Assembly: GCA_031291305.1 (NCBI GenBank)
Contig: JARLJH010000020.1
Span: 1 to 64,000, forward strand
Length of the DNA stretch: 64,000 nt
From: Rhodoferax sp.
GTDB lineage: Bacteria; Pseudomonadota; Gammaproteobacteria; Burkholderiales; Burkholderiaceae_C
Direction of reading: 5' to 3'
In this document: one piece after another, positions 1-13,890 of the stretch
How the letters are laid out: the number at the start of each line of letters is the position of its first letter
Numbering within the stretch: the stretch's first letter is position 1
Notes under the pieces: model-generated
What the model was told of the DNA's origin: nothing
What the model saw: the letters and a program-made list of their open reading frames with translations, nothing else
The model's database searches: none
Position numbers and translations under genes: made by a program

Positions 1-590
1 ACCAGCGTTCGATCGCGGATGATGCCCGCCTTCACGCTCTCCATCAGCCCGGCGCGCAGTTCGCGGTCCGAAAGCGTGCCCAGCACGCCTATATCGGCAA
101 ACACCGCGAGTGGATGATGGAAGCTTCCGACCAGGTTTTTGCCCTCGGGCAGGTTGACGCCGGTCTTGCCGCCGACGCTTGAGTCGACCTGCGCCAGGAA
201 CGTCGTGGGCACCTGCACATAGGCAATGCCGCGCATGTAAATCGCGGCCACAAATCCGCCCACGTCGCCCACAATGCCGCCGCCAAAGGCGATCAGCAGC
301 GAGCCGCGATCGCCCCCGGCCTGCGCCATGCCGCGAAGCAGTTTTTCAACGCTGCCGAGGGTTTTGTATTTCTCGCCCGGCTCCAGAAAAAGCACGATGG
401 GCGGCTCACGAAAGGAAGTCAGAAATGCCTCGGACCAGAGAGCCCAGATTGGCGCGGAAGTGAGCACGAAAACTCGCCGTGGCAGCCGGCCGGCAATCCT
501 CTCAATGCGAGGCGCCAGGGTCTCGATCAGGCCGCTGCCGGCGATCACGTCGTATTTAGCCGAAGGTGTGTCGACACGAATGGTTTGCAC
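1..590 (-). CDS. aroB: 3-dehydroquinate synthase, partial (C-terminus beyond window)
   Basis: Second step of the shikimate pathway: converts DAHP to 3-dehydroquinate using NAD and a divalent metal in the cytoplasm. The minus-strand translation contains the family signatures [13 protein letters not shown] (NAD-binding glycine-rich turn), [19 protein letters not shown] and NLVGSFHHP, in the right order and spacing. About 196 of the usual 350-370 residues are present; the rest lies before base 1. I place the start at a GTG (588-590), giving [20 protein letters not shown]; the frame stays open further upstream with no better start, so the start is uncertain. The family call is firm. Confidence 0.9.
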
Positions 591-701
591 GCTGCTTTTA
601 TCGTAAATGCATAGGCTGGGGTGGAGCACAAAGCAAAGCGGCGAAGCTGGTTTGCTCCGCCGCTGGTTGTGGATGAAGCCGCTCGGTTTAGCAGCTATGG
701 A

Positions 702-1274
702 TTACTTCTGGTCTGTGCTGCTGTCATGTCCGCGGGGCCTTCCACCGCCACCGCCGCTTGGCCGTCCACCACCACCACCACTTGGTCGTCCGCCGCCTCC
801 TCCGCCGCTACGGGGAGCGCTGGCACGGGGAGCGCTGTTGCTTCTCGCTGCAGGTCGACCCGCACTGGGACGGGCACCGCCGGAACGTACTGCGCCGCTA
901 CCGTGAACCGCGCCGCCGCCCCCACTGCGTACTCCACCCCCACCGCCGCCGCGAGCAAAGTTGCTGTGGTTGGCCGCGTAACCGCCGCCACCGCTGTAAC
1001 TGCCGCCGCCGCCGTTCACAAAGCGATGCCCGCCCCAGCCGTGGCCATAACCCCAACCGGCCCACGGACCCATGCCCAGAAAGATGCCGTTGTAAAAGTA
1101 GCCCGGGCCGTAAAAGCCGTAAGGCGAGCAGGCGTAAGGGGCATAGTCGTAGTAGCCATATTGGCAAACTGGTTGGATACCTACTTCGACGACAACCTGT
1201 GCCTTCGCGGCCGGCGCAATCGCCATGCCGACCAGCAGTGCAGAAGTACCGATGAGAATCTTGAGTCCACGCAT
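702..1274 (-). CDS. glycine-rich secreted protein of unknown function
   Basis: 190-residue protein. Starting at the ATG at 1274, it opens with a signal peptide (MRGLKILIGTSALLVGMAIA, cleavage probably after AKA). A Tyr/Gly/Pro/Phe-rich stretch follows (residues about 40-75), then a low-complexity Gly/Ser/Arg tail with tandem RPSGGGGG units ending in a hydrophilic HDSSTDQK. The frame extends 23 codons further upstream, but that extension lacks a signal peptide, so I prefer 1274. Such YXX-motif glycine-rich exported proteins are common in Acidobacteriota. No enzyme motif is visible and I assign no function. Confidence 0.6.
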   Translation of the reverse strand: MRGLKILIGTSALLVGMAIAPAAKAQVVVEVGIQPVCQYGYYDYAPYACSPYGFYGPGYFYNGIFLGMGPWAGWGYGHGWGGHRFVNGGGGSYSGGGGYAANHSNFARGGGGGGVRSGGGGAVHGSGAVRSGGARPSAGRPAARSNSAPRASAPRSGGGGGGRPSGGGGGRPSGGGGGRPRGHDSSTDQK

Positions 1275-1543
1275 GTGTTCCCCCCTTGAGGTGTGTGCCG
1301 TTGCCTGTTGTGCGCTGGAAGCTCTTCGGTCTCGATGAAGCACCTGGCCGTCGGAGCTACCATAAGGATTCTTGTTTTCGTATCCTCAAAATCCCTCACA
1401 CGCCCCGGGGGTTGTTGACGGTATGTCCTTACGAATTCAACCTTAGGCTCCATTTAGGCGGCGGTCTGAGCATTATGAACCACCATGCCTGGTGGAACCA
1501 TCCCGGAAATTCAGAGCGCCGCGAGTGTTAGCCTCAAAAGGTT

Positions 1544-3154
1544 ATGGCAATTCCTACTCAGGTTGATTTTCTGGTCATGGGCGCGGGTGTGGCAGGGTTG
1601 CGCGCAGCGGTGGAACTTGCGCGGCACGGTGAAGTGCTCGTGGTTACCAAGGAGTCGCTTGGCGAATCGAACACGCATTATGCGCAGGGCGGAATCGCCG
1701 TGGCCACGGAAGGCGACGCAGACATTGCTCTGCATCTTGAAGACACGGTCAACGCCGGCGATGGCCTTGTCTATCGGCCGGCCGCCGAGGTACTTGTGAA
1801 CGAAGGGCCGCGGCGCGTGGCGGAGTTGATTGACTGGGGAGCGGACTTCGACAAGCAGGATGGGGAACTGCTGCGCACCCGCGAGGGCGCCCATTCGCTG
1901 CCACGCATTCTTCACGCCAACGGAGACGCGACAGGCGCTGAGATCAGCCGTTCTTTGGTCGCGTACGCGCGCGCCCACAAGCGCATTCAGTTTGCCGAGT
2001 GGACCATGGTCACCCGCCTGGTGGTTGCCGATGGCCGCGTTGTGGCGGCAGATCTGGCCGCGGCGGGGCCGGAAGCAGCCGACCCTCAACCGCATCGCGT
2101 TGCTGTCCGTTCTGTGCTGATCGCGGCCGGTGGCGCGGGACAGGTTTACTCTGACACCACCAACCCCGCAGTGGCCACCGGAGACGGCATCGCGCTTGCC
2201 TTTGATGCCGGTGCCGCCCTGGCCGACATGGAGTTTTACCAGTTCCACCCCACGGCGTTGGCTCTGCCGGGTGTGCCGCGCTTTCTGCTTTCGGAAGCCC
2301 TGCGCGGCGAAGGCGCGTATCTTCGCAATGATCGCGGCGAGCGCTTCATGGAGCGTTACCATCCGCTGCTTGAACTCGCTCCGCGCGATGTGGTGGCGCG
2401 GGCCATTGCGCGCGAAGGCATGGGCAAAAACGCCGCAGACACGCGCGTGGTTCATCTGGATATGCGTCACGTCAAGAACGTCGACCTGCACCAGCGTTTT
2501 CCGGGCATCAGCGCGTTTTTGGCCAAGCACGATCTTGACCTGATGCGCGATCTCATCCCCGTCCGTCCCGCGGCGCATTACCTCATGGGCGGCATCCGCA
2601 CCGATCTCGATGGACGTACAAACGTGAAGGGCCTCTATGCCGCGGGCGAGGCAGCCTGCACCGGCGTTCACGGGGCCAACCGGCTCGCGTCCAACTCGTT
2701 GCTGGAAGGCCTGGTCTTTGGTGCCCGTGCTGCCGCTGCCATGCTCGCTGATGGATTGTCGTTCGTGCCGATCGCTGAAGTTGCCGCACCGCTCCAGGCG
2801 ATGACGCGCGAGGAAGACGCTTTCGTCGAAATCCTCGTTCACCATTTGCAAAGAGCGATGTGGATCGACGCCGGGTTATTGCGCCAGGAGTCGACGCTGC
2901 TTGCGGGGCTTGCTGCCCAGGCTGAGTGCGAAGCCGGTCTTCAGCGTTTCGTCCAGCAGGGCAAAACCAGCCGCCCGCTGCTTGAAGGCCTGGCGTTAAG
3001 CTCCGTGGCGCAGGTAATTCTCATCTCGGCACTGGCGCGCACTGAGAGCCGAGGCGCCCATTTTCGCAACGACTATCCACATCGCGACGACACGAACTTC
3101 CGCGCACATTCCGTTCTCACGCGCGGTGCCGAAATCTCGTTTGAAGTCTGGTAG
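1544..3154 (+). CDS. nadB: L-aspartate oxidase
   Basis: FAD-dependent oxidation of L-aspartate to iminoaspartate, the first step of de novo NAD synthesis, working with NadA. 536 residues, the normal length. It has an N-terminal Rossmann FAD motif (residues 8-20, VMGAGVAGLRAAVELA type), the SNTHYAQGGIA signature of the succinate dehydrogenase/aspartate oxidase family, the FHPTAL active-site segment around residue 230, HYLMGGIRTDLDG, and the C-terminal ALRTESRGAHFR-type segment (here LARTESRGAHFRNDYP). The ATG has a purine-rich AAAAGG only about 2 bases upstream. The 269-base gap upstream (1275-1543) contains no other gene that I can see. No nadA or nadC nearby. Confidence 0.92.
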   Translation: MAIPTQVDFLVMGAGVAGLRAAVELARHGEVLVVTKESLGESNTHYAQGGIAVATEGDADIALHLEDTVNAGDGLVYRPAAEVLVNEGPRRVAELIDWGADFDKQDGELLRTREGAHSLPRILHANGDATGAEISRSLVAYARAHKRIQFAEWTMVTRLVVADGRVVAADLAAAGPEAADPQPHRVAVRSVLIAAGGAGQVYSDTTNPAVATGDGIALAFDAGAALADMEFYQFHPTALALPGVPRFLLSEALRGEGAYLRNDRGERFMERYHPLLELAPRDVVARAIAREGMGKNAADTRVVHLDMRHVKNVDLHQRFPGISAFLAKHDLDLMRDLIPVRPAAHYLMGGIRTDLDGRTNVKGLYAAGEAACTGVHGANRLASNSLLEGLVFGARAAAAMLADGLSFVPIAEVAAPLQAMTREEDAFVEILVHHLQRAMWIDAGLLRQESTLLAGLAAQAECEAGLQRFVQQGKTSRPLLEGLALSSVAQVILISALARTESRGAHFRNDYPHRDDTNFRAHSVLTRGAEISFEVW

Positions 3155-3159
3155 CCGGA

Positions 3160-4023
3160 CTAACTCGCCGCCGTCTTTTCGGGCGCAAGCACTGACAGGA
3201 CCGCGCAGAGCGCAAGAATTGCTCCCATGATGGCCAGCGAAAGGGTGATAGGCACGTCAATCCAGTGCGCGGTCAGCATCTTCAGCGCCACAAACGCCAG
3301 CAGCGCGCCCAGCCCATAATGCAGATAGCGCAGCCGATCAAGCAGCGCGGCCAGCGCAAAGTAGAGCGAGCGAAGCCCGAGAATCGCCGCGATATTTGAC
3401 GTGTATACCACAAACGGATTGTGGCTTATGGCCAGCACCGCCGGAATCGAATCGGTCGCGAAAATCACGTCCGTCACTTCAATCGCCAGAATCACCGGAA
3501 GCAGCGAGCCCTTCGCCGGCTGAAGGTTGCGAATCCATTCTGGAATAGCCGCGTTGGCCGAACCGCCGCGCGCCAGCCGGAAAGCCGCGTAGAGCAGAAA
3601 CAGGCCGAAGATCCAGTTGATCCATTCAAACCGGCGAAGCAGCGCGATACCGGCAACGATAAACAGCGCGCGCAGCACAACCGCTCCGGCCACGCCCCAC
3701 AGCAACGCATTGTGCTGCCGCTGCCGGCTGATGCGGAACCCCCGAAAGATGACCAGAAAGACGAAGAGATTGTCTACGCTGAGCGAGGTTTCAATCGCAT
3801 AGCCGCCTACCCATTCGAGCGCCGTCTGCCGGCCGTGAGAGACAGCGATCCAGCAGGCGAATGCCGCTGCGGTAACGATCAGCACCCCGGTCCAGATCCA
3901 GGCAAACATCTGCGCATTGCGGTCCTCCTGCTTGTGCCCAGGCAGCAGGGAATCGATCAGCAGCAGCGCCGCCACCGCCGCATGGAACCACAGCCACCAT
4001 GTCCAGGAAACGCCCGCAATCAT
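3160..4023 (-). CDS. TerC family integral membrane protein
   Basis: 287-residue inner-membrane protein with about seven to eight hydrophobic segments, starting at a predicted ATG with WTWWLWFHAAVAALLLIDSL as the first helix. The family hallmarks are present: ETSLSVDNLFVFLVIF in the third helix and EVTDVIFATDSIPAVLAI in the middle of the protein, with acidic residues inside membrane helices thought to bind metal. TerC/Alx proteins are linked to tellurite resistance and manganese export or metalation of exoenzymes; the substrate here cannot be told from sequence. It is convergent with nadB with a 5-base gap. Of TerC subfamilies it is closest in shape to Alx. Confidence 0.85.
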   Translation of the reverse strand: MIAGVSWTWWLWFHAAVAALLLIDSLLPGHKQEDRNAQMFAWIWTGVLIVTAAAFACWIAVSHGRQTALEWVGGYAIETSLSVDNLFVFLVIFRGFRISRQRQHNALLWGVAGAVVLRALFIVAGIALLRRFEWINWIFGLFLLYAAFRLARGGSANAAIPEWIRNLQPAKGSLLPVILAIEVTDVIFATDSIPAVLAISHNPFVVYTSNIAAILGLRSLYFALAALLDRLRYLHYGLGALLAFVALKMLTAHWIDVPITLSLAIMGAILALCAVLSVLAPEKTAAS

Positions 4024-4075
4024 TCCTGAATGCTACAGGATGAGTAAGCCAATCGATCCCTTTCCTGAGTCGCGA

Positions 4076-4507
4076 CTATTCCAGTACCAGCACATGCTTC
4101 CCGAACTTCGGTCCGGCCATGTGCTTTATCGCCTTGTCCAAAGTCACAAGCACGCCGTTTTCCTGAATCACTAAGCCCAACAGCCAGGCATCTGTGATTT
4201 GCTGGTGGCCCCAAACGCGTTCCCGAAAGGGAGCGACGAGTTCCGGCCAACTGGCCGTGATGGGCCAATACCGGTAGCCCGGGCGTTTGGTCAGGGCGCC
4301 GAGAATGTCGGCCGCATCGTCAAACGTCAAACGACCCAGTTTAGGATTCACTGATATACGCAAGAATCCTGCCTGGGAGAACGCGCAGAGGCCCCAATCG
4401 AGGCCCGACGTGACAAACCAACTCATCACTATGCGGTAATGGACGTGAGCCTCGTCGGTGAGGGCTATCAACACATTCACATCGAGCAGATAATTCGGCT
4501 CGCTCAA
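4076..4507 (-). CDS. PIN-domain ribonuclease toxin (VapC-like)
   Basis: 143 residues. The PIN fold is marked by the N-terminal YLLDVNVLIAL (first catalytic Asp), a central acidic segment, QITDAWLLGLVIQENG (later acidic residues) and VLVTLDKAIKHMAG at the end. PIN toxins are Mg-dependent RNases, often cutting tRNA or rRNA. The start is TTG at 4507, which overlaps the antitoxin stop as TTGA, so the pair is translationally coupled. The upstream partner is a ribbon-helix-helix type antitoxin, which supports a VapBC-type toxin-antitoxin pair. The RNA target is unknown. Confidence 0.8.
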   Translation of the reverse strand: MSEPNYLLDVNVLIALTDEAHVHYRIVMSWFVTSGLDWGLCAFSQAGFLRISVNPKLGRLTFDDAADILGALTKRPGYRYWPITASWPELVAPFRERVWGHQQITDAWLLGLVIQENGVLVTLDKAIKHMAGPKFGKHVLVLE

Positions 4508-4752
4508 TCGTCGTACTCTTCCAATGCGGCTTTCACCATCTCCGTGGTGATGACTCTACCGCGAGCGCGTGCGACGAGCAGTCCATTTGGGAGTCTCTTG
4601 AGCCGTGGCGAAGGGGATGGCTCAGCAAGCCGTGCCTCCTGGGCCTTACGCGCGAATTCGCTGAGCGCGGCACCCAGCGTGATGCCCTTGCCTTTGGCGC
4701 AGAGCATAGCCAACTCATACGCGTCGTCGTCGAGTGTGACTGTGGTTCTCAT
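4504..4752 (-). CDS. VapB-like antitoxin
   Basis: 82 residues from the ATG at 4752. The N-terminal MRTTVTLDDDAYELAMLCA matches the ribbon-helix-helix strand-and-helix pattern of antitoxins that bind their own operator as dimers. The C-terminal half (LPNGLLVARARGRVITTEMV, then KAALEEYDD) is the likely toxin-wrapping tail. The open frame extends 15 codons upstream to 4797, but the internal ATG matches the family start. It overlaps the downstream PIN toxin by four bases. Upstream DNA around 4755-4800 is AT-rich and would hold the promoter and operator. Confidence 0.75.
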   Translation of the reverse strand: MRTTVTLDDDAYELAMLCAKGKGITLGAALSEFARKAQEARLAEPSPSPRLKRLPNGLLVARARGRVITTEMVKAALEEYDD

Positions 4753-4872
4753 GCGATGATTATGCATCAAGTTTGAATTTGATGCAACTAATCGCAATTG
4801 ATGCAGAGTGAGACAAGTACATCGATAGCTATAACTACATCAAATCGAAGCGGAAGCAACGAACTGCCCATC

Positions 4873-5334
4873 TCACCGCAAATCAATCAGCCGAATCGTC
4901 TCCAGGAACACATCCCCGTCAATCGTCAAACTCCGCGCGCTGATCTTGTCCAGTGTGTCCTGGGCTGTGTGGTGGTAGCTGTTGTTCGGGCCGTAATCCA
5001 GGTCAATCACATCGATTGATGGCACACCGCGCTGCACAAAGGGCAGGTGATCGTCCTCCACCGCCTCTTCGGTCTGGAAGAAATACCGCTCGTAGCCGAA
5101 CTTGTGCGCTGCCTGCTTGACCAGGTCCACCAGCCAGCCGGTTGACTTGGTTTCCCGCTGAATGTCCAGGTCCTTGTCGCCGATCATGTCGGCCAGCATG
5201 AACGCCTTGATCTTGCCCAGCGTTCCATCGCGGCCCCACTTTGACGCCAGGTGGCGGCTGCCATAAGTTGAGTCGGACGCGGACCAGGTCTGGATAGCTT
5301 CTTCGCCGTCAAAGAAAACCAGCCACACCGAATA
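4873..5334 (-). pseudogene. M28-family peptidase / glutaminyl-cyclase-like, C-terminal fragment only
   Basis: About 154 residues that match the C-terminal half of the M28 zinc peptidase/glutaminyl-cyclase family. SVWLVFFDGEEA is the family's metal-ligand and catalytic Glu segment, DSTYGSRHLA follows, then IKAFMLADMIGDKDLDI and, near the end, DDHLPFVQRGVPSIDVIDLD and HHTAQDTLDKIS (a further metal ligand region). The N-terminal half with the first zinc ligands and any signal peptide is missing. In their place the frame is joined, without a stop, to a RecD-like helicase. This fragment belongs with the Acidobacteriota-like left end. It is very probably a cut gene at a chimeric join, not a real fusion protein. 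Confidence 0.8.
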
Positions 5335-7305
5335 GCCGTCGAACTCAGCAACGCAAATGATTGAATCCGTCGATTCTGGTTCAACCGCACGGACTATTCT
5401 GCCGAGGGCTCCATTCCTCAGACCCAGCGTGTAGTCGTTGTCAGTGAACATCACCAGGTCGCCAACCCTCAACCCCAGGCTGTCATCAGTTCTCTCGGGC
5501 AATAGGCCAAATTCCTTAGTCATTGATTGAACCGGAATTTCTTGGCTCTGGAAGTGGCTGTGCAGCATTTCATTGATCCCGCGGACCCCACCGGCCCCAT
5601 TGCGTGTCGTCGAAAGCACTTGCGCACTGAAGTCCTTGCCATTGCCACCAAGTGCCAAGTACACGTCCTTCACCATTTGGTCGACCTCGGCACTTCGGCA
5701 TTCGATGAACGAGACACCTGATCCAATGCCCTGATACGCTGCCCATGTCGGACACCGATGCGCCCTAATGTCGGCTGCAACCTGTGGAATTCCGCTTGCA
5801 GAGGACTGGCGCTTAACTGTCTTCAGTTGCACCTGGGGAATTGAAGGAAGATCGGCTAGTGCGTGTAACACGAGGCCCGGCCCAATGGGTGGCAGTTGCG
5901 AAGGATCGCCAATTAGCACCAGCCTCACACCGTTGGGCACATGCCGCAGTAAACGGTACATGAGAATGACGTCCACCATGGATACTTCATCGACAAGGAC
6001 AAGGCTACCGGCCACCACTTCTTCATCGAGCAGAAACGCCGCAATCGTTTTGCTTGGTCGCCCCGTGGCTTCGGTCATGCGCTGTGCGGCTCTACCTGCT
6101 AAGGCAAGCTGGTAAATGACCAGACCCGGCTGATCTCGTTCCAGAGCCTGACACAGCGCTTTAAGTACGGTGGTCTTGCCCGTACCGGCACCACCAAGGA
6201 TGAGACTAAAGTGATTCGTAGCGCTTACGCGCACGGCATTTATCTGTTCGTCGGTTAAAGCAATGCCGTTCATGCTCTCGTACAGAGTAATCGACGCATC
6301 GACGTGGCTGATGGGGAGAATAGGCACGTCAAGCAATTCACCCTGACCGTCAAAGTCCGGGCCCGTCAACATGCCGTGCATACGAGCAGCGACATACGAC
6401 TCGATCCGGTTCATCCCAGAGGTCTGCAGCACCTCAGCGACTTCGCAGATGCGCCCGTCGGTTAAGGCGACCGCCAAAGCTTGATCGGCCAAGTCTGAGA
6501 TCCCCAGCAACTGCATTAGACCTGCTCGAACCTTGGCGCGTGCAAGGCAGGTGTGCCCGACTCCCAAGGCCCGGTACAACGCCTCTTCAGTGGCTGCCAG
6601 GAGGCGGCGCGGATCATCGCTTGCAATACCAAACCTATTTCGCGCAAGGCCGTCAACGACCGCCCATCTGGCCTCGAAAGAGACCAAGAGGTAGGGATTG
6701 GCTTCGATCTTTTCCTTTGCCTGGCCTTGGTAGTATGCTGCAACCGACGCACCTATCTTGCGGGGAATGCCTAGCTGATCCAGCCACATTAACGTCTGCG
6801 CAACCCGGTGTTTCTCGAAGGCCTGGCACAAACTTTCGGCGGACTGCTGCCCGACGATCACGGAAATTTCGTAAACATTGCCCTGTTCAATCAACTCAAC
6901 AAGACGGGGGCCGAAGTGTTCGTACAGGCGTCGTGCTTTCACTTCACCAATGCCTTGGCAGTCGGGGGACTGCGCGATCCATTGCACCAGGTTTCGCCCG
7001 GACGGACGCAGCAGTGACAACTGCACAGCATTGATCTGTTGCTCACAGTGCTTGATGCCGTTTAGCTCATAGAAACGCGTCGAAGGAGTGCCCTGTACCT
7101 CCCAAACCTGGGCCGTGTCCACAAAACTGCTGTCCGGGATGACGGAGTAGTCTGCAACGACAACATGGCCATCCCCACTGTCAGTCTTGCCGCCGAAGAT
7201 GATTCCACCATTCACACCCCTGGAGCGCACAGAGGTAACCCTGAGCGTCACCGTCACAGTTGGCTCTGCATGGTGGTCAGCAAAAGCTGCAAGGACCGCA
7301 CTCAT
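4873..7305 (-). CDS. RecD-like SF1 helicase, truncated and fused in frame to an M28 peptidase tail
   Basis: The frame codes 810 residues; the first about 655 are a RecD/RecD2-like helicase. It has a helix-hairpin-helix segment (GIGEVKARRLYEHFG, about 118-132), Walker A GGAGTGKTT (371-379), the DExx box LVLVDEVSMVD (435-445) and GDPSQLPPIG (466-475). The usual C-terminal UvrD_C_2 block with the HKSQG motif is absent because the frame switches to M28 peptidase sequence after EFDGY, near 5335. Its ATG overlaps the stop of the preceding coiled-coil gene by four bases, making it the sixth gene of the recombinase operon. The intact protein would presumably unwind or remodel DNA during element transfer; that role is inference. 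Confidence 0.75.
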   Translation of the reverse strand: MSAVLAAFADHHAEPTVTVTLRVTSVRSRGVNGGIIFGGKTDSGDGHVVVADYSVIPDSSFVDTAQVWEVQGTPSTRFYELNGIKHCEQQINAVQLSLLRPSGRNLVQWIAQSPDCQGIGEVKARRLYEHFGPRLVELIEQGNVYEISVIVGQQSAESLCQAFEKHRVAQTLMWLDQLGIPRKIGASVAAYYQGQAKEKIEANPYLLVSFEARWAVVDGLARNRFGIASDDPRRLLAATEEALYRALGVGHTCLARAKVRAGLMQLLGISDLADQALAVALTDGRICEVAEVLQTSGMNRIESYVAARMHGMLTGPDFDGQGELLDVPILPISHVDASITLYESMNGIALTDEQINAVRVSATNHFSLILGGAGTGKTTVLKALCQALERDQPGLVIYQLALAGRAAQRMTEATGRPSKTIAAFLLDEEVVAGSLVLVDEVSMVDVILMYRLLRHVPNGVRLVLIGDPSQLPPIGPGLVLHALADLPSIPQVQLKTVKRQSSASGIPQVAADIRAHRCPTWAAYQGIGSGVSFIECRSAEVDQMVKDVYLALGGNGKDFSAQVLSTTRNGAGGVRGINEMLHSHFQSQEIPVQSMTKEFGLLPERTDDSLGLRVGDLVMFTDNDYTLGLRNGALGRIVRAVEPESTDSIICVAEFDGYSVWLVFFDGEEAIQTWSASDSTYGSRHLASKWGRDGTLGKIKAFMLADMIGDKDLDIQRETKSTGWLVDLVKQAAHKFGYERYFFQTEEAVEDDHLPFVQRGVPSIDVIDLDYGPNNSYHHTAQDTLDKISARSLTIDGDVFLETIRLIDLR
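5325..5345. other. probable chimeric join between two genomes
   Basis: On the minus strand the helicase reading CVAEFDG passes directly into YSVWLVFFDGEEA of an M28 peptidase. Both halves contain FDG encoded by nearly the same codons (TTCGAC/TTTGAC plus GGC), a short shared stretch that could have driven a false or microhomology join. Gene content on the two sides fits different phyla. Same strand and same frame by chance has a probability of about one in six, so the open fusion is not evidence of a real gene. Confidence 0.7.
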
Positions 7306-7817
7306 GGATTCAGCAACCTTCCTGTGCGGCTCAGGTGTTCTTCGCGCATCTGGTTCCTGCGCAACTGATCCTTGAGTTCACGCACCTCCGCCTTGAGTGT
7401 GGCATTTTGCTCCTCCAGAGCCTTGACGCGATGTTCCGCTTTTCCCTTGGCCGCCATAGCACGGCGCACGGACTGCTCGGCCAGCGCCTCGGTCTGAGAT
7501 GTGTTCGGTTCGTCTTGCCCTTGAGTAGGTGAGTGCCCAGTGACAAGAATACCCAGGGCGATCAGTCGTTCTTCCACCGATTCAAGCGCGACGGCAAGGG
7601 CAGGGTTTTGCTGCCATGCAGCGCGTCCGAAGCCGCATTCGGCAGCAATTTCAGAGCGGTTGAGTTTGCCCGCGCGCAGGTAGTCGCGCCAGTCCTCGGC
7701 CTTCTCCCTTTCGCCCACCCAAGCATTGAAGCGTTCAACTGCCTGCGTCGCCAGTTCGGCATTGCTGGGTTTGCGTGTGGCCTGGCACTCTTCGCTAAAC
7801 AGTCCATGTGCCATCAC
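7302..7817 (-). CDS. small coiled-coil accessory protein of the recombinase module
   Basis: 171 residues. The N-terminal half contains a predicted helix-turn-helix-like stretch (KLNRSEIAAECGFGRAAWQQ, about residues 50-69) followed by NPALAVALESVEERL. The C-terminal half (about 110-165) is a charged heptad-rich coiled coil (HRVKALEEQNATLKAEVREL). The layout of a DNA-contacting head plus coiled coil recalls small accessory proteins such as TnpC of Tn554, but I cannot show homology. It overlaps both neighbours by four bases, so it is translated with the recombinases and helicase. The function in recombination is inferred from context only. Confidence 0.7.
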   Translation of the reverse strand: MMAHGLFSEECQATRKPSNAELATQAVERFNAWVGEREKAEDWRDYLRAGKLNRSEIAAECGFGRAAWQQNPALAVALESVEERLIALGILVTGHSPTQGQDEPNTSQTEALAEQSVRRAMAAKGKAEHRVKALEEQNATLKAEVRELKDQLRRNQMREEHLSRTGRLLNP

Positions 7818-8236
7818 TTGGCTCCCCCGGTGTGGTGCCGGTCAATCTCCGGCAATGGTTGATTGAGCTGGTCCAGTGTGAGTTTTCCTCGGCTGTTGTA
7901 GAGCCAGACGGCAAACTGTTGATTCAGTTGGTTCAGCCGCCACTTGAGTTCTTGGATTTCGGCGTCCTTGGCCGCCAGCCGATGAGCCGCTGCGGCCAAG
8001 CTGCTGGGAAGTGCTGCCTTTGGCGGTGGGGCGACTTTCAGCCCAGCCTTGCGCGCCTGAAAGGCTTCTTGTATCGCAGGGTGGGCACTCAGTCCCTGGC
8101 GTCCAGGGCGGTACCCCAGAATCGCTGCTGACTGTTCACAGACAGATTCCCAGGAAATCTTTTCTTCGGACCAACCGCGAATGATATTCACAATGGCTTG
8201 GACATCATCGGGTCTAATGTGTTTGTTACGCGCCAT
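7814..8236 (-). CDS. small helical accessory protein of the recombinase module
   Basis: 140 residues. The N-terminal region (RPDDVQAIVNIIRGWSEEKI, then WESVCEQSAAILGYRPGRQGLSAH) looks like a small helical, possibly DNA-binding domain. A Pro/Ala linker follows, then a coiled coil (LAAKDAEIQELKWRLNQLNQ, about 90-110) and an Asn/Gln-rich end. It overlaps the 777-residue recombinase by 11 bases and the next small gene by four. Size and position resemble the small third protein of gamma-mobile-trio modules, but this is a comparison by layout and memory, not a demonstrated match. No catalytic motif is visible. Confidence 0.7.
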   Translation of the reverse strand: MARNKHIRPDDVQAIVNIIRGWSEEKISWESVCEQSAAILGYRPGRQGLSAHPAIQEAFQARKAGLKVAPPPKAALPSSLAAAAHRLAAKDAEIQELKWRLNQLNQQFAVWLYNSRGKLTLDQLNQPLPEIDRHHTGGAK

Positions 8237-10559
8237 GTGTTTTCTCCTGCTTTGGGGCGCCCGATTGCAGGCTGTGAGACAGTGGCGGCGGACGATAGAT
8301 CGTGATGGATTTTTCGGTCATATCATCTTGTTTGATTGCCACCAGCATTTCCTGAACCACGTCGCTGGGAACAGTATTGTTTTCCAGAGCCCGCATGGCA
8401 ACACTGCGAAGGACGCGGTGCAGATGCGTTTGGCTGTTAGAACCAGCAAGTTTGACAAGTGCACCCTCTTGGGTCTGATTGCTTTGCAGTATGTCCACTA
8501 GTTGCTGTAGCTTGTCGTGCCATTTGCTTTGGGCGTTGTACCAATCCTGTGCGCCCCAGTCGCCATCGTCCATCTTTGCCTTGGCCTGATTGACCTCATG
8601 GGCGACGAGGCTCATGAGTTCTTTGATACGCACCAGTTTTTCCTGTTCCTCACCTCCAGAGCCCTTGATGCAGGTATGGTCGCTGCAGTCAAGGCACTGA
8701 GCGAATCCCTCGCATGGACTGAGCACGTAATCGTGTTCACAGCGGCCGTAGAGGGTATTGATGCCAGAAAGTTGGGGCTGCATGTCCAGGTCCTGGCAGG
8801 ACGCGGGCTTGTTACCTGTGTTAATACGCCAGTATCCGTGGGTGGTGATTTCGCTTGACCTTGAATTTGAACCAGGGACGGTGGCTTTGATCGACTCTGT
8901 GCCATTGGGACGGAAGGGAACGATGCTGAAGTCGCCAGTGCTATCGGTCAAAATCTCTTTTGCCCGGTCGACGCGCTCCTGTTCGGTCATGTTGTTATAG
9001 ACCTCGTTTTGAGCCTGATTGGCCCGACCGGACCACCATGCAATCTGCTCATTGGTCATTTTTCCGCGTTGGGCTTCGGTGTTGAGCAAATGCCGCATGC
9101 TGTGCGATCTGAGTTTCAGCGGTTCACCGTTGGAATCACGGTAGCCGTGGCGGTCGAAAATGCTGGTTCGGGTCGCGTCCGAGAGCCCAACGTCTTGTAA
9201 GTAGCGAGGCAGAGATGGCATCCAAAGTTGAACCGGACTGGTGCCCATCCCTGGGTGCAGTTGATTTGCGCGCATACAAAAGAGTGCTTCGCTAAACTTC
9301 AGTCCACCTTTTTTGCCTTTAGCGGCTTCTTTTGCATTGATGTATGGGAAGTGGGGATGATTCGTCTGATGCCTTGGTATCACATGCGTATGCCACAGAT
9401 CATGCAAACTGTATGTGTGATTTTTGGTTGTTAGCTTTGCCATTTTTAAGGATGCCGCTGGCATCACTGTCGATAGCCCCAATGCCATACACACTTGCTC
9501 TGCTGTTAAGGGCTCGTCTTCATCGACATTCGGGCAATTGGCGTGGCGGTAGAAGCGGTTTCCGGTCTTGGGGTCTTCCATCCAACGGGCAAGGTTTCTG
9601 GCCTCTTCGGTCATGCTTTTCACACGGTCAAGCGCGATTTGAGCGACTGGCACCATGCCGTCCCAAATCCATTTGATATAGCTCCCAAAGCCCTTGCCAG
9701 CCTCCCACCGCAAACCAACCTGCTCCGTCCTAAAGCGGTCGGTGGCCTTGAAGACAAGATCGACCGGAAGATGATGAGTTTCTTCGCCGCCTCGGGATGG
9801 GGCCGACAAGAGTAAGGCAGTGACACTCGTGGTGTAGATGTCGCGCTGATGTGATGGATCGAGTGGGTTGAGGTCGTGGTTGAAGATTTCGGCTAGGGCT
9901 TTCAACGCATCCTGATCGGGCAGTTTTGATGCACGGTGCGCCTCACCAGCACTGCCCACCGCCAATCCCAATTGCTTTACTTTCGGCATGGGGGAGACCC
10001 AGGAGCCCACGGCCGCTAGGGTGAGTTGTCGTTTGCCCAGGAGAGATGCAATAGCTTGCAAAGCCTGTCCGGTTTGGTACACGTTTTGCCCGGTGAAATA
10101 TTTCGGAATAAGGGCAGCAGCCCGGTCCAACACCGCAATATTGATGTTGGCTGGATTTGCATCCGAATTGAATTCCAATAGTGCCATCTCCAGCAAGCGC
10201 AAGGGAGGAAGGCGGTGGTGGTGGTGGGAGCTACTTTCGCGGGGATTTTGTGCGTGACGCTCGCGGACGTATGCTTTAGCGAATTCGATGAATGAAAGAT
10301 CAAGCAGATGTGAAAGCGGGATATTTTTGCGTTTGCTGGACTTAATCCAGTCATATTTGATGAAGGATCCCACTCCGGGCCATTTCCAGGCGCTCCAGTC
10401 GAGATCCGATCCCAGTACGGTTAGGTCTTCTTTGGCTGATCGAATGTACTCAGCCAAGTTTGCAGCAGCCTGGGCATGGTCTTTCGGTGTGAGTGTGGTA
10501 ACCGAGGTTAGCGGCGTAGGTTTCGCGTCCCCTGATTGATCGAGGTCATCCAAACTCAT
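8226..10559 (-). CDS. large divergent tyrosine recombinase (third recombinase of the module)
   Basis: 777 residues. The catalytic set of tyrosine recombinases can be picked out: Arg256 in APSRGGEE, His486-x-x-Arg489 in SHSMRHLLNT, Trp508/509 in the place of the second His, and the nucleophile Tyr521 in NEVYNN. The N-terminal 200 residues would be the arm/core-binding region and include a short His run (112-115). After the catalytic domain a Cys/His-rich segment (Cys588, 607, 616, 622, 625, 630) suggests a zinc-binding domain, followed by a helical tail. It is much larger than ordinary phage integrases. It overlaps its neighbours by 4 and 11 bases. It probably cuts or joins element ends together with the two upstream recombinases. 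Confidence 0.8.
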   Translation of the reverse strand: MSLDDLDQSGDAKPTPLTSVTTLTPKDHAQAAANLAEYIRSAKEDLTVLGSDLDWSAWKWPGVGSFIKYDWIKSSKRKNIPLSHLLDLSFIEFAKAYVRERHAQNPRESSSHHHHRLPPLRLLEMALLEFNSDANPANINIAVLDRAAALIPKYFTGQNVYQTGQALQAIASLLGKRQLTLAAVGSWVSPMPKVKQLGLAVGSAGEAHRASKLPDQDALKALAEIFNHDLNPLDPSHQRDIYTTSVTALLLSAPSRGGEETHHLPVDLVFKATDRFRTEQVGLRWEAGKGFGSYIKWIWDGMVPVAQIALDRVKSMTEEARNLARWMEDPKTGNRFYRHANCPNVDEDEPLTAEQVCMALGLSTVMPAASLKMAKLTTKNHTYSLHDLWHTHVIPRHQTNHPHFPYINAKEAAKGKKGGLKFSEALFCMRANQLHPGMGTSPVQLWMPSLPRYLQDVGLSDATRTSIFDRHGYRDSNGEPLKLRSHSMRHLLNTEAQRGKMTNEQIAWWSGRANQAQNEVYNNMTEQERVDRAKEILTDSTGDFSIVPFRPNGTESIKATVPGSNSRSSEITTHGYWRINTGNKPASCQDLDMQPQLSGINTLYGRCEHDYVLSPCEGFAQCLDCSDHTCIKGSGGEEQEKLVRIKELMSLVAHEVNQAKAKMDDGDWGAQDWYNAQSKWHDKLQQLVDILQSNQTQEGALVKLAGSNSQTHLHRVLRSVAMRALENNTVPSDVVQEMLVAIKQDDMTEKSITIYRPPPLSHSLQSGAPKQEKTHGA

Positions 10560-12308
10560 AGGCGGACCTCCGCACCTTCGGGATATTTGGGGATACTCAA
10601 CTCTTGGCGGCGAACTTCACATTTTTGGATCACGTTGATGATTGCCACGATGGTCGAGTCTGCGGCTTTGGTGACTCGATGGTCCTTGCCAAGCGTCGCC
10701 TCGCGTTGGTGACGCTCGGTCAGTAGTTCGCTCAGAACATCCAAGTGGGGCCCCTCCAGCCAGGGCTGGAAATGGTCACACTCGTAGCAGCACAGGGGAA
10801 TGCGACTGCCCATTCCACATTGTTTGCGGGTACCACAAGTTGCAGTGCCCTTGCCCTTGAAGTGAATACGGCTGGATCGCGGATCGTCCCCCGCCAACGC
10901 GTCCGCTTCCGTGTCAACTATTTGCCCTCGAAACAACTGGGCCAAGTTTCGCATTGTCGGAGACAGGGCCATGGCTGTGTTGGCAGGAATGGCATGTTCT
11001 GGCAGGTTGTCGGTATAGACCTTCACCGATTCAACAGTGCTGTGATCCAGCAACCAGGCGATGATGTCTCGACCTAAGCCTTCGCGGGCGAGGTCGGTGC
11101 CCTTGGTGTGGCGCAGGCGTAAGGCGTTGATGCTCAGGGGCTCGCCCGTGCGTGAAACGCTTCCAGCTACCTTCACCGCAGCCTGCAACAGAATGGTGAT
11201 TTTTTGACCGGAATGATGCCACTGCGCGCCTGCTGCTGCCGCTCTTAGGTCTTGGAGCGCTTGACCGTGCTGACCGTCATGTCTCAACGGAGCAAGTGCC
11301 TCAAGCGATGTCGAGATTCTTTTCCAGTCGGGGAATATCGGTAAATCGGCTTGGAGGGCCAAAAGGTCTTGTGCTTGGAGCGCCCAGTCGTGACTCGCCA
11401 ACAGGCTTTCGAAACCACGTTGGACCATGCGCTGTTGCATGCGAAAAACCGCAAAGAATTCAGGTGACCATTGCACTGACCGGAACTCATCGCGAAATGT
11501 TGCAGCATGTTGCTTGCTACGGGGAACGTGCATCAGTAGCAGTGTTTCAGTGGGAGCTTTGTGGTCGTCGGATTTTGAGGTTGAATCTGGGTCGAGGGCA
11601 CGCCCTTCATCAAGATCCTTGCACTTGAGATTGGCGCTCTGACTGGGGCGGCGACCCGTGGCGATGTGGAATAGGCTGAGCGAAAATGGCTCCAAGTCGA
11701 GTGTGTCCCGTTCGTATGCGGATTGAATGTCTTTGGCTAAGGTTGTGCAGTTCAGTTGGCTCCAGTGGGCCCTTCTTGGGGTCCATAGATCGCACGGCAC
11801 GCCCGCTTTCATAACCCTTGAAGGTCATCTCTTTCAGTGCCTCGTACACTTTTCGATCTATCCCTGGATAGCGAAGGCTGTACCAATCTTTGAGGAAAGC
11901 TCTGAGTGTCCTGAGATAACCCTCATGCCCAAAACGCTGGATCAGTGTTTCCCGATAGTTTTGTAAGTCCACGACCCACCAATTGGCGATGGGTTTTCCC
12001 GGGTTTACGCGCTTGGCGTAGTCCTTGAGAATTGAACTTAGGTTGCTGAGCACGGCCGGGCTGCGATTGCGAGCGACGTGACACAGTGTCATCGTCAGGC
12101 CCACCTGTAGCTCCGGAGCCATCAGGGCTCGCAGTGGAGCAACCTTCAGCGTAATTCGGGCGTTGAGTTTCCATTCGTCGGCATAAATGTCGAAAGCTTC
12201 GCCTTGAAGCGATACCTCAATTTGACTCGGGCGAGCGACAACGTGGTCGCCTGAATTGACCGTTGCGAAGGCCAATCCAAGCGGGAGGTCAGTTCGGTCG
12301 TCGCTCAT
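10556..12308 (-). pseudogene. second tyrosine recombinase, broken by a one-base frameshift
   Basis: The region reads as one protein of about 583 residues only if one base is skipped near 11734-11744. Frame one gives residues 1-190, ending PLEPTELHNL. Frame two continues AKDIQSAYERDTLDLEPFSL. The total length is 3x584+1 bases, exactly one too many. Catalytic residues in the second frame: Arg in ATGRRPSQ (about 219), Arg399 in LRLRHTKGT, His422 in LDHSTVES, Tyr431 in VKVYTD; the usual first His of HxxR is Leu. A Cys-rich segment (CGTRKQC, CCYECDHFQPW) lies near the C-terminus. The slip site CTT-AGC-C could permit +1 frameshifting, but an indel or sequencing error is simpler. It overlaps both neighbours by four bases. 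Confidence 0.75.
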
Positions 12309-13579
12309 GTCGTGTCTCCTTTGTCGCCCCTGTTCAGCCTCATAGCCTCCGCTAGTGTTTCTTGAGTTTTGAGACCTGCCTCGCTGGCTTTGCGGTCGAT
12401 GTGCCGCTTGTTGTAAACCTTAGCCATGTCTGACTGCTCAGACCAGCCGTTGAGGTTGGCTCGTACTTTGGTTTCTTCGTCTTCATTGCGCTCCCCAGTT
12501 CTTTTGTCAAACGTCTCGCTTAGCTTGTCATTGAAGTGGTGCCGAAGGAGATGGGGATGCAGATGGGACAGTCGTGGCTCGGATTGCTTTATGGTGCGAA
12601 AGACTTCTTCCAAAGCGCCTTTGGTCATGGGTTGTCCCTGCGTCGGTCCAGCTTTGTGATTCACAAGCAGGTAGGGATGTTTACTGGCACCGGGCACTCC
12701 GCGCCTTTCAACGATATAGTCTTGATAGAGTTGAATCACCTCACGGGTCACCGCAATCGTGTGCTCCCTGGTTTTTACGCGAGGCTGATTGAGGCGTGGA
12801 TCAAGCTTGCTGTCCGGTCGACGCACGATGCTCAATTGTTGGCGGCGGGGATCAATGTCTCTGGCTTGAATGTTGAGCACTTCGCTCTTGCGTTTGCCCG
12901 CGCAACGCATGATTTGAATTGCTAGGTAATTGCGTATTTGGGTTCCAGTTTCGCGGAAGGGGTTGCGAGCTGATCCCGGTGTGATGATTTCATGGAGCAA
13001 GGCATCGTCTTGAGCCGACCACGCGCTTTGTTCTGGGTCGCTACCAAGAGAACGCACCGCCGGACGCAGTTTGAGGATATTGGCCCGCATCCTCTCGATC
13101 TCGAAGATTCGCTCGGAGTTCATCGCTGGTCCGCCAAGTTCCTCCGCAAACCATTGAAGGTAATTGGCCATTTCTGTTAATCGCGTATAGGCGGTGGCTG
13201 AAGCAACGGTTTTAGTCGCTGGTTTGAAGCCGCGTTTGCCTTCTGTTAACGAGACGACGACGGATGTCGCTTGCGTGCCCGGTCCCATGTGAGTCTGCGC
13301 CGCCCGGCGCAAATGTTCGCATTCAACCGGGGAGAGGTAGCCACATCTACTGAAACGCTGCTCAATAGGGATGTTCTGCTCTTGAAGGTGAATCAGCAGA
13401 ACATGGATGGCGTTGAACGCTGACTGCATCGCCGACAGCGACAGACCTTTATTCCGAATTTTGGCGGTGACGTACAGAAGGCTTGGTTGGTGAGGTAAAC
13501 CGATTTCAACATTCAGCAGGTGACAGAAACGCTCACCATCAGGCCAGCGATAGTTCTCAAGCTTGTATTGTTTGGACAT
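12305..13579 (-). CDS. tyrosine recombinase (first gene of the module)
   Basis: 424 residues, first gene in the six-gene operon. The catalytic residues are complete: Arg230 in CAGKRKSEVL, Lys269 in VKTREHTI, His343-x-x-Arg346 in HPHLLRHHFN, Trp379 in place of the second His, and Tyr389 in AKVYNKRH. The N-terminal 200 residues form the predicted SAM-like core-binding domain. The ATG at 13577-13579 is preceded by AT-rich DNA with an inverted repeat (13598-13617). It ends in ATGA overlap with the second recombinase. Size and position as lead gene resemble the recombinase of trio-type islands. Breakage and joining of DNA at the element ends is the expected role. Confidence 0.85.
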   Translation of the reverse strand: MSKQYKLENYRWPDGERFCHLLNVEIGLPHQPSLLYVTAKIRNKGLSLSAMQSAFNAIHVLLIHLQEQNIPIEQRFSRCGYLSPVECEHLRRAAQTHMGPGTQATSVVVSLTEGKRGFKPATKTVASATAYTRLTEMANYLQWFAEELGGPAMNSERIFEIERMRANILKLRPAVRSLGSDPEQSAWSAQDDALLHEIITPGSARNPFRETGTQIRNYLAIQIMRCAGKRKSEVLNIQARDIDPRRQQLSIVRRPDSKLDPRLNQPRVKTREHTIAVTREVIQLYQDYIVERRGVPGASKHPYLLVNHKAGPTQGQPMTKGALEEVFRTIKQSEPRLSHLHPHLLRHHFNDKLSETFDKRTGERNEDEETKVRANLNGWSEQSDMAKVYNKRHIDRKASEAGLKTQETLAEAMRLNRGDKGDTT

Positions 13580-13719: not shown

Positions 13720-13890
13720 CTATTTCAGTTTCATTTCCTTGTATTCCACGTGCTTGCGAGCTTTGGGATCAAATTTCTTGATCAGCAATTTCTCGGGAGT
13801 GGTCTTCTTGTTTTTATCTGTGGTGTAGAAGTGACCGGTGCCGGCTGTCGATTCCAGCTTGATTTTTTCGCGTCCGCCTTTGTTTGCCAT
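13720..13890 (-). CDS. rpmG: 50S ribosomal protein L33
   Basis: 56 residues starting [20 protein letters not shown], with [15 protein letters not shown] and a basic end [14 protein letters not shown]. This is full-length L33 of the proteobacterial type without the four zinc-binding cysteines. It lies 17 bases after rpmB, in the usual rpmB-rpmG order, and a terminator follows. It sits in the 50S subunit near the E site. Confidence 0.95.

What the first reader, a model, noticed from the sequence alone, without database searches (positions are those of the whole stretch)
5335..13579. Six-gene overlapping operon: three tyrosine recombinases, two coiled-coil proteins and a RecD-like helicase
All five gene junctions overlap (4, 4, 11, 4, 4 bases), so the proteins are made together. 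Tandem tyrosine recombinase trios (RIT), Tn554 TnpA/B/C and gamma-mobile-trio islands are known layouts, named here from memory. A helicase as sixth coupled gene and two different small coiled-coil proteins would be an extension of these. The three recombinases differ strongly from one another, so this is not simple duplication. It may be a distinct class of mobile element whose movement needs DNA unwinding.
Basis: partly seen in the sequence, partly recalled or inferred. Interest (0 to 1): 0.85.

Follow-up and report, generated by a model that had tools for sequence, protein, structure and literature searches.

The report
GInt island with swappable helicase pair
The six genes are the front end of a worn-out copy of a known kind of bacterial genomic island that moves with three recombinases, plus an optional two-gene helicase cassette that has been swapped between otherwise different kinds of island.

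Summary
The layout is real but was read too generously. The first four genes are the ginABCD operon of a GInt (Genomic Island with three Integrases, PMC5385486): 74 of 80 relatives from one genome scan carry all four, and 43 of 79 elements examined sit behind ssb, a known GInt target. This copy lies at the 3' end of rpmG; its right end is on another contig of the genome. It is a relic: ginB is split by a frameshift near 11,735, and the helicase lost its C-terminal motifs and runs in frame into a piece of an M28 peptidase gene, ending at 4873, not 5335. The last two genes, a VPA1267-family protein and a RecD2-like helicase, are an optional coupled pair: 11 of 71 evaluable scan loci have it, as do annotated GMT islands and two unassigned recombinase modules. 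A GInt and a GMT share the pair at 88-93% DNA identity from its first start codon to just past the helicase stop, with no DNA match outside in the stretches compared. My searches of the held papers showed no description of this; the GMT paper was not held. New variant of a known kind; the pair's role is inferred.

The parts
13720..13890 (-). rpmG (ribosomal protein L33), the target gene; the island begins at its stop codon (...CTGAAATA|GG)
   Evidence: PF00471 60 bits; read directly. In genus relatives rpmG is followed by its own terminator, which is displaced here. The native downstream sequence lies on contig C43 of the same genome from 37376 on.
12305..13579 (-). R1 = GinA, tyrosine recombinase, 424 aa
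   Evidence: PF00589 3e-14; GmtY model 30 bits against a cut-off of 340; R230, H343, R346 and Y389 in 78 of 78 rows, W379 in 75.
10556..12308 (-). R2 = GinB, tyrosine recombinase, broken: ORFs 11610-12308 (N part) and 10556-11812 (C part), frameshift near 11733-11740
   Evidence: Both parts hit NF041502 (114 and 292 bits, cut-off 350); stops in frame; alignment to L049 GinB.
8226..10559 (-). R3 = GinC, divergent tyrosine recombinase, 777 aa
   Evidence: Weak PF00589; best-segment identity 56% to L049, 26-45% to the other scan loci; R256, R489, R512 and Y521 in 87 of 87 rows, H486 in 86.
7814..8236 (-). GinD, 140 aa, helical N-terminus plus long helix (coiled coil)
   Evidence: Profile hit in 77 of 80 scan loci; AF2 model mean pLDDT 81.7.
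7302..7817 (-). VPA1267-family protein (NF040697), 171 aa, first gene of the optional pair
   Evidence: 102 bits against a cut-off of 90; profile match to GinD 94%, E 1e-7, partly in the coiled coil; AF2 mean pLDDT 76.9.
5356..7305 (-). RecD2-like SF1 helicase, truncated: Walker A and B kept, C-terminal motifs lost (end approximate)
   Evidence: TIGR01448 285 bits over residues 89-643; alignment to 12 homologues. Motif names recalled.
4873..5334 (-). 3' part of a Peptidase_M28 gene, fused in frame to the helicase (start approximate)
   Evidence: PF04389 1.9e-19 over residues 658-802 of the fused ORF; no match in 23 other genomes of the genus.
4076..4797 (-). VapC (PIN) toxin gene and a VapB-like partner; cargo or neighbouring acquired DNA
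   Evidence: PF01850 1e-6 and TIGR00028 79.6 bits (cut-off 73.6) for VapC; partner only a weak PF09957 hit, below cut-off.

Best explanation
This is a decayed GInt genomic island at the 3' end of rpmG. Known for GInts (PMC5385486): GinA, GinB, GinC and GinD are all needed to excise and integrate the element at a short site, often at the end of a conserved gene, via a circle. Shown here: four gin-type genes in order, the left and right junctions with rpmG, a broken ginB, a truncated helicase, and an added VPA1267-helicase pair that recurs in other GInts and in GMT islands and has been exchanged as one block. Inferred: in intact islands the pair is an accessory to recombination. The VPA1267 protein, built like GinD, would bring the RecD2-like helicase to the recombination complex, and the helicase would unwind or displace a strand while the circle is made or copied. 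The window copy is not expected to move by itself. The confidence given covers identity, decay and exchange; the accessory role alone I put at about 0.5.
For: GInt identity: 74 of 80 scan loci hold all four genes; an SSB C-terminus lies within 600 nt upstream of R1 in 43 of 79 elements examined (43 of 73 with at least 600 nt upstream), a target reported for GInts; a ribonucleotide reductase gene lies upstream in L009, L010 and L105, also a reported target. Ends: C50 13721|13720 and C43 37375|37376, the latter continuing into the terminator and desaturase gene found behind rpmG in relatives. Pair as a unit: the helicase start overlaps the VPA1267 stop by 4 nt in 16 of 20 loci and by 1 nt in 2. 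Pair tied to recombinases: VPA1267 matched 12 of 398 genomes; in the 9 whose surroundings were read, 9 have a recombinase-type module directly upstream. In plasmids 33 of 40 listed VPA1267 matches (47 records) overlap an annotated gmtX, and 4 of the other 7 have a GmtX match ending 2 nt away. Exchange: L101 (GInt) against L156 (GMT) 93.0% over 2,647 nt, from the VPA1267 start codon to 44 nt past the helicase stop; L157 (GInt) against L156 88.3% over 2,629 nt.
Against: 60 of 71 evaluable scan loci lack the full pair (L049 keeps a shortened VPA1267 gene, L070 a helicase fragment), so recombination in general does not need it. The pair needs at least 14 changes on a GinC tree with 17 pair and 63 no-pair rows, the pattern expected of cargo. 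47 plasmid records match VPA1267 (E 1e-3) against 134 for GmtX (E 1e-10). No experiment links the pair to excision. The L031 helicase matches PADLOC's typeIV_RecD at 200 bits, and known defence genes follow the pair in several islands, so it could be defence cargo. The two junctions share exactly only 'TA', against 10-17 nt imperfect repeats reported for GInts. No GInt reference sequence from the paper was compared.
Confidence: 0.8

Rival explanations
1. The VPA1267-helicase pair is ordinary cargo, most likely an anti-phage system, that happens to be the first cargo module after ginD or gmtX.
For: Optional and scattered; the L031 helicase matches typeIV_RecD (200 bits). Of 8 proteins behind the pair that I chose from 6 loci for PADLOC, those of five loci gave strong defence hits: L022 (PD-Lambda-2 B and C), L032 (RT-Toprim), L037 (GajA), L045 (MzaC, MzaE), L074 (type I methyltransferase); L033 gave only a weak one. 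L066 has a type I restriction subunit.
Against: It follows the last recombination gene directly in all 9 regions read from the phylum search, precedes the other cargo, is followed by ordinary-looking genes in L036 and L048, and its small protein resembles GinD.
Confidence: 0.35
2. One reading: a distinct class of mobile element whose movement requires the helicase.
For: The six-gene order recurs and the last two genes are tightly coupled.
Against: The first four genes correspond to a described operon; a minimal GInt built in the paper integrated and excised, all four gin genes were needed, and no helicase is mentioned. Most evaluable relatives lack the pair.
Confidence: 0.05
3. The broken ginB and the helicase-peptidase fusion are assembly or sequencing artefacts and the real island is intact.
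For: Draft assembly, 69 contigs, 1.43% contamination. The first 5.3 kb of the contig look foreign: no M28 match in 23 other genomes of the genus, only two short DNA matches for the terC stretch, and an aspartate-oxidase-like gene at most 44% identical to any match in the 24 genomes searched, including another one of this genome on C22 (43%).
Against: The fusion keeps an open frame of 810 aa; other elements also carry broken gin genes (L005 by an IS1, L037, L048).
Confidence: 0.25
4. The helicase-M28 fusion is a working two-domain protein.
For: Open reading frame of 810 aa.
Against: Both partners are partial: the helicase lacks the C-terminal motifs and the M28 match covers only profile positions 56-191 of 193; none of the 12 aligned homologues shows the fusion.
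Confidence: 0.02

Closest known systems
GInt, Genomic Island with three Integrases (ginABCD; Bardaji et al. 2017, PMC5385486; read: outline and abstract, parts 1-3 of 6 of the text, and passages)
   Same: Three tyrosine recombinases plus one small protein in one operon at the 5' end; insertion at the end of a conserved gene, often ssb; cargo from the ginD stop on.
   Different: Target here is rpmG; the junctions share exactly only 'TA'; a second small protein and a RecD2-like helicase follow ginD; this copy is broken. 'helicase' has 0 occurrences in the paper's main text; its supplement was not seen.
Gamma-Mobile-Trio islands (gmtY, gmtZ, gmtX; Mahata et al. 2024; paper not held, seen only as citations, one sentence in PMC12715929, and plasmid annotation)
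   Same: Recombinase module followed, in L156 and L158, by the same VPA1267-helicase pair in the same position.
   Different: R1 scores 30 bits against GmtY's cut-off of 340. Outside the pair, L156 shows no DNA match to L101 or L157, and the only protein matches are weak ones between GmtY and GinA (24-30%, E 5e-5 and 4e-4).
Strand-biased circularizing integrative elements, SE (intA, tfp, intB, srap; PMC10214605, passages read)
   Same: Four-gene core with a small coiled-coil helper; the paper compares them with GInts.
   Different: Gene order and families differ by that paper; 'helicase' has 0 occurrences in its main text. No SE protein was compared here.
Tn554 (TnpA, TnpB, TnpC) and RIT trios
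   Same: Tandem tyrosine recombinases; the GInt paper reports low but significant identity of GinD with TnpC, data not shown there.
   Different: Three proteins each by the table in PMC10214605, no helicase listed; not compared here by sequence.

Membership tests
GInt | ginABCD operon: three tyrosine recombinases and one small protein, in that order | tested here: met
   all four in 74 of 80 scan loci. No reference sequence from the paper was compared; identity rests on number, order, sizes, target genes and the NF041502 family. In this copy ginB is split.
GInt | Site-specific insertion, typically at a conserved gene end | tested here: met
   rpmG 3' end here; SSB tail upstream in 43 of 79 elements examined.
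GInt | Flanking imperfect direct repeats of 10-17 nt | tested here: inconclusive
   The junctions share exactly only 'TA'; no second copy of the rpmG tail with up to 2 mismatches in the genome. A loose likeness (CTGAAATAG and CTTAATGAG, 6 of 9) can be seen at the two ends but was not tested against chance.
GInt | Cargo starting at the ginD stop codon | tested here: met
   The pair overlaps the ginD stop by 4 nt here; L032 and L029 match at 92% until 13 nt before the end of ginD and then differ.
GInt | Short AT-rich 3' end | tested here: inconclusive
   Last 300 nt before the right junction are 55.7% AT against 43.0% for the window; no further control.
GInt | All four genes essential for excision and integration | not testable with these tools
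   Shown in the paper by mutants.
GMT | GmtY recombinase over the curated cut-off | tested here: not met
   30 bits against 340.
RIT / Tn554 | RitABC or TnpABC proteins | not tested
   No so-named model among the hits, but no reference sequence was compared.
SE | intA-tfp-intB-srap order and families | not tested
   Only the paper's statement that GInt and SE separate by sequence.

The most novel reading that the evidence does not exclude
The VPA1267-RecD2-like helicase pair is a portable mobility cassette: a self-contained two-gene unit that plugs in directly behind the last recombination gene of at least three different tyrosine-recombinase modules (GInt, GMT, the L104 type, and perhaps the L102/L103 type as a fourth), is exchanged between them with ends at its own start codon and just past its stop, and gives the host island helicase-driven strand displacement during replicative or strand-biased circle formation.
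Probability: 0.35. Interest if true: 0.72.

Novelty: new variant of a known kind. Interest (0 to 1): 0.5.

Why it matters
GInt and GMT islands carry defence, toxin and resistance cargo, but how multi-recombinase islands move, and why several GInts left no detectable empty site after circle formation, is open. A helicase pair shared by different recombinase modules and swapped as one block points to a common, separable step in their movement and gives a direct test: remove the pair and look at circles and empty sites. It also gives a marker (a VPA1267-family gene next to a RecD2-like helicase) for finding island types that are not yet assigned, such as those in L102-L104.

Tried and rejected
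GMT membership: rejected on the GmtY score. A repeat of the rpmG tail as attR: none in the window with up to 3 mismatches or in the genome with up to 2. The missing helicase C-terminus in the stretches of C43 and C50 fetched: not found. A shared motif TTTTGTAAAGTTT as island end: near both sides in L036, L042 and L048 but not general. PDB fold search with the GinD model: nothing, best E 1.6; the VPA1267 model was not searched. PDB sequence searches with GinD and VPA1267 profiles: no match better than E 0.003, nearly all coiled coils. DUF6262 (which I recall as TnpC-like) is hit by 7 of 19 VPA1267 and 5 of 25 GinD members, but unrelated coiled-coil families are hit about as often (Cnn_1N 6 of 19, ZapB 7 of 25), so I give it little weight. 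The 2025 PNAS paper on phage-carried islands (PMC12595487, outline and passages): a different, single-integrase, tmRNA-targeting type.

Dropped before counts: 9 of 80 scan loci not evaluable downstream of ginD; 7 of 87 rows not evaluable on the GinC tree, a quick tree with SH-aLRT support only; 3 of the 12 genomes with a VPA1267 match (loci L096, L099, L100) not read in context. The scan kept the best 80 of 94 relatives. In the helicase tree L102 and L103 were labelled GMT; one search then found no blastp match of theirs to GmtYZX of L156 and L158, so that label is unsure and the '3 changes' for GMT rests partly on it. What stands without them is the closeness of L156 (annotated GMT) to L101 and L157 (GInt).
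Full report
What is there. On the - strand the window holds R1, R2, R3, two small proteins and a RecD2-like helicase with overlaps of 4, 4, 11, 4 and 4 nt. R1 and the C part of R2 match the phage integrase family above its cut-off, R3 only weakly; the second small protein is VPA1267 family, over its cut-off. Two corrections are needed. R2 is broken into two frames near 11733-11740. The helicase ORF continues to 4873 and ends in a piece of a Peptidase_M28; against 12 homologues it lacks the C-terminal stretch with 'HKAQGSQF' and 'YTA.TRA', which I name from memory as SF1 motifs V and VI.

Relatives. A scan of genome contigs with an R3 alignment found 94 relatives, of which the best 80 were kept. 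The VPA1267-helicase pair follows directly in 11 of the 71 loci that could be judged. Of the other loci, L049, the nearest relative, keeps a shortened VPA1267 gene and L070 a helicase fragment. In the order-wide search with R3, 2 of 399 genomes had a match, the window's own among them.

Known kind. The four-gene core corresponds to the ginABCD operon of GInts (PMC5385486; outline, abstract, parts 1-3 of 6 and passages read). That paper reports insertion at the end of ssb and of a ribonucleoside-diphosphate reductase gene. Here an SSB tail lies within 600 nt upstream of R1 in 43 of 79 elements examined, or 43 of the 73 with at least 600 nt upstream, and a ribonucleotide reductase gene lies upstream in L009, L010 and L105. 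'Helicase' has 0 occurrences in the main text of that paper and of the related SE paper. I did not compare the paper's own sequences. The two papers say that GinC lacks the first arginine, or the catalytic RHRY motif; in 87 GinC rows here R256, R489, R512 and Y521 are invariant and H486 is kept in 86, with R489 and Y521 32 residues apart. I read this as a possible catalytic set by position; it is not shown.

Ends. In genus relatives rpmG is followed by a terminator and in many by a desaturase gene. In the window rpmG runs into the island at its stop codon. On contig C43 of the same genome, from 37376, lies the native continuation (TAATTCGG..., terminator, desaturase), matching relatives by blastn, and left of it other sequence with a resolvase-type serine recombinase gene. 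So the rpmG locus is split: left end on C50, right end on C43. The two junctions share exactly only 'TA'; longer imperfect repeats as reported for GInts were not tested against chance. What lies between is unclear. The genes at window 1-5335 look foreign to the genus: the M28 piece matches none of 23 other genomes, the terC stretch gives only two short DNA matches, and the aspartate-oxidase-like gene is at most 44% identical to any other match in the 24 genomes. This may be cargo, a rearrangement, or a chimeric contig.

The pair. VPA1267 and helicase genes overlap by 4 nt in 16 of 20 loci and by 1 nt in 2 more. A phylum search found VPA1267 in 12 of 398 genomes, 5 over the cut-off. Nine of these 12 were read in context (eight fetched regions and the window). 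Six have the R1-R2-R3 module upstream (window, L101, L105, L106, L107, L108; in L105 and L106 the small gene in between is not recognised by the GinD profile), and three (L102, L103, L104) have other modules, each with a recombinase-like gene. In plasmids, 33 of 40 listed VPA1267 matches (47 records) overlap an annotated gmtX, and 4 of the other 7 have a GmtX match ending 2 nt away. L156 and L158 show gmtY, a second large gene, gmtX, VPA1267 and AAA ATPase in a row, while L157 shows a GInt-type module with the pair. Against this, 134 plasmid records match GmtX at E 1e-10, so the pair is optional there too. The helicase itself belongs to a wide family: 372 plasmid and 36 phage records match at E 1e-20.

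Exchange. On a GinC tree of 87 rows (17 with the pair, 63 without, 7 not judged) the pair needs at least 14 changes. L032 has the pair and its near twin L029 does not; their DNA matches at 92% until 13 nt before the end of ginD. On a helicase tree, those of GInts L101 and L157 group with those of L156 (annotated GMT) and L102 at 100/99 support. At DNA level L101 and L156 match at 93.0% over 2,647 nt, and L157 and L156 at 88.3% over 2,629 nt, in both cases from the VPA1267 start codon (or the base before it) to 25-45 nt past the helicase stop, and nowhere else in the 14-16 kb stretches compared at E 1e-5. In L157 the helicase frame is shorter (669 aa). The window's own helicase is nearest to L031, L064 and L066 (47-51%), while its GinC is nearest to L049, L010 and L009 (43-56%), which lack the helicase: the pair and the core have different histories.

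Function. Of 8 proteins behind the pair that I chose from 6 loci, those of five loci gave strong PADLOC defence hits (L022, L032, L037, L045, L074), and L066 has a type I restriction subunit. In L036 and L048 the next genes are a GntR/aminotransferase-type regulator and an RmlD-type enzyme, so these islands may hold the six genes alone. Both small proteins are predicted as mainly helical with a long C-terminal helix and resemble each other as profiles, partly through the coiled coil. I put the accessory role in recombination or circle copying at about even odds, with defence cargo as the main rival. No experiment decides this.

Limits. The GMT paper was not held, so whether it already describes the pair is unknown. 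Paper searches: gamma-mobile-trio (6 papers, 2 opened at passages); VPA1267, VPA1268, VPA1269, GmtX, GmtZ (15 of 21 listed); ginABCD, GInts, ginD (20 of 20,209 listed, mostly unrelated words; PMC6405952, which names ginABCD, was not opened); RecD-like with tyrosine recombinase (4 listed, none opened). None of what I saw describes the pair. Decay in this copy may in part be assembly error.

Noticed in passing
L153 (own genome, contig C43) 36540-37124 in contig coordinates: A resolvase-type serine recombinase gene (PF00239) next to the right end of the island, with an inverted pair of about 20 nt nearby (seen by eye) that may be a small IS-like element.
   Followed up: partly
window 1544-3154: An aspartate-oxidase-like gene at most 44% identical to any other match in 24 genomes of the genus, while this genome has another match on C22; the first 5 kb of the contig look acquired or chimeric.
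   Followed up: partly
L102 4214-9672, L103 6644-12098, L104 4420-9267: Three-gene recombinase modules in front of the VPA1267-helicase pair that had no blastp match to GmtYZX of L156/L158 or to the L101 Gin proteins; L102 and L103 are distantly alike and by layout might be remote GMT relatives.
   Followed up: partly
GinC rows, window 8226-10559: GinC keeps R256, R489, R512 and Y521 in 87 of 87 rows and H486 in 86, although two papers call it an incomplete or non-catalytic recombinase.
   Followed up: partly
L062 5553-6857: A GinA-like gene lies behind ginD on the opposite strand instead of in front of ginB.
   Followed up: no
L160 7519-10316: A VPA1267-like and helicase pair (65 and 606 bits) in a Rhodovastum plasmid directly behind a RepB-type primase gene rather than a recombinase module; a possible counter-example to the mobility reading.
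   Followed up: no
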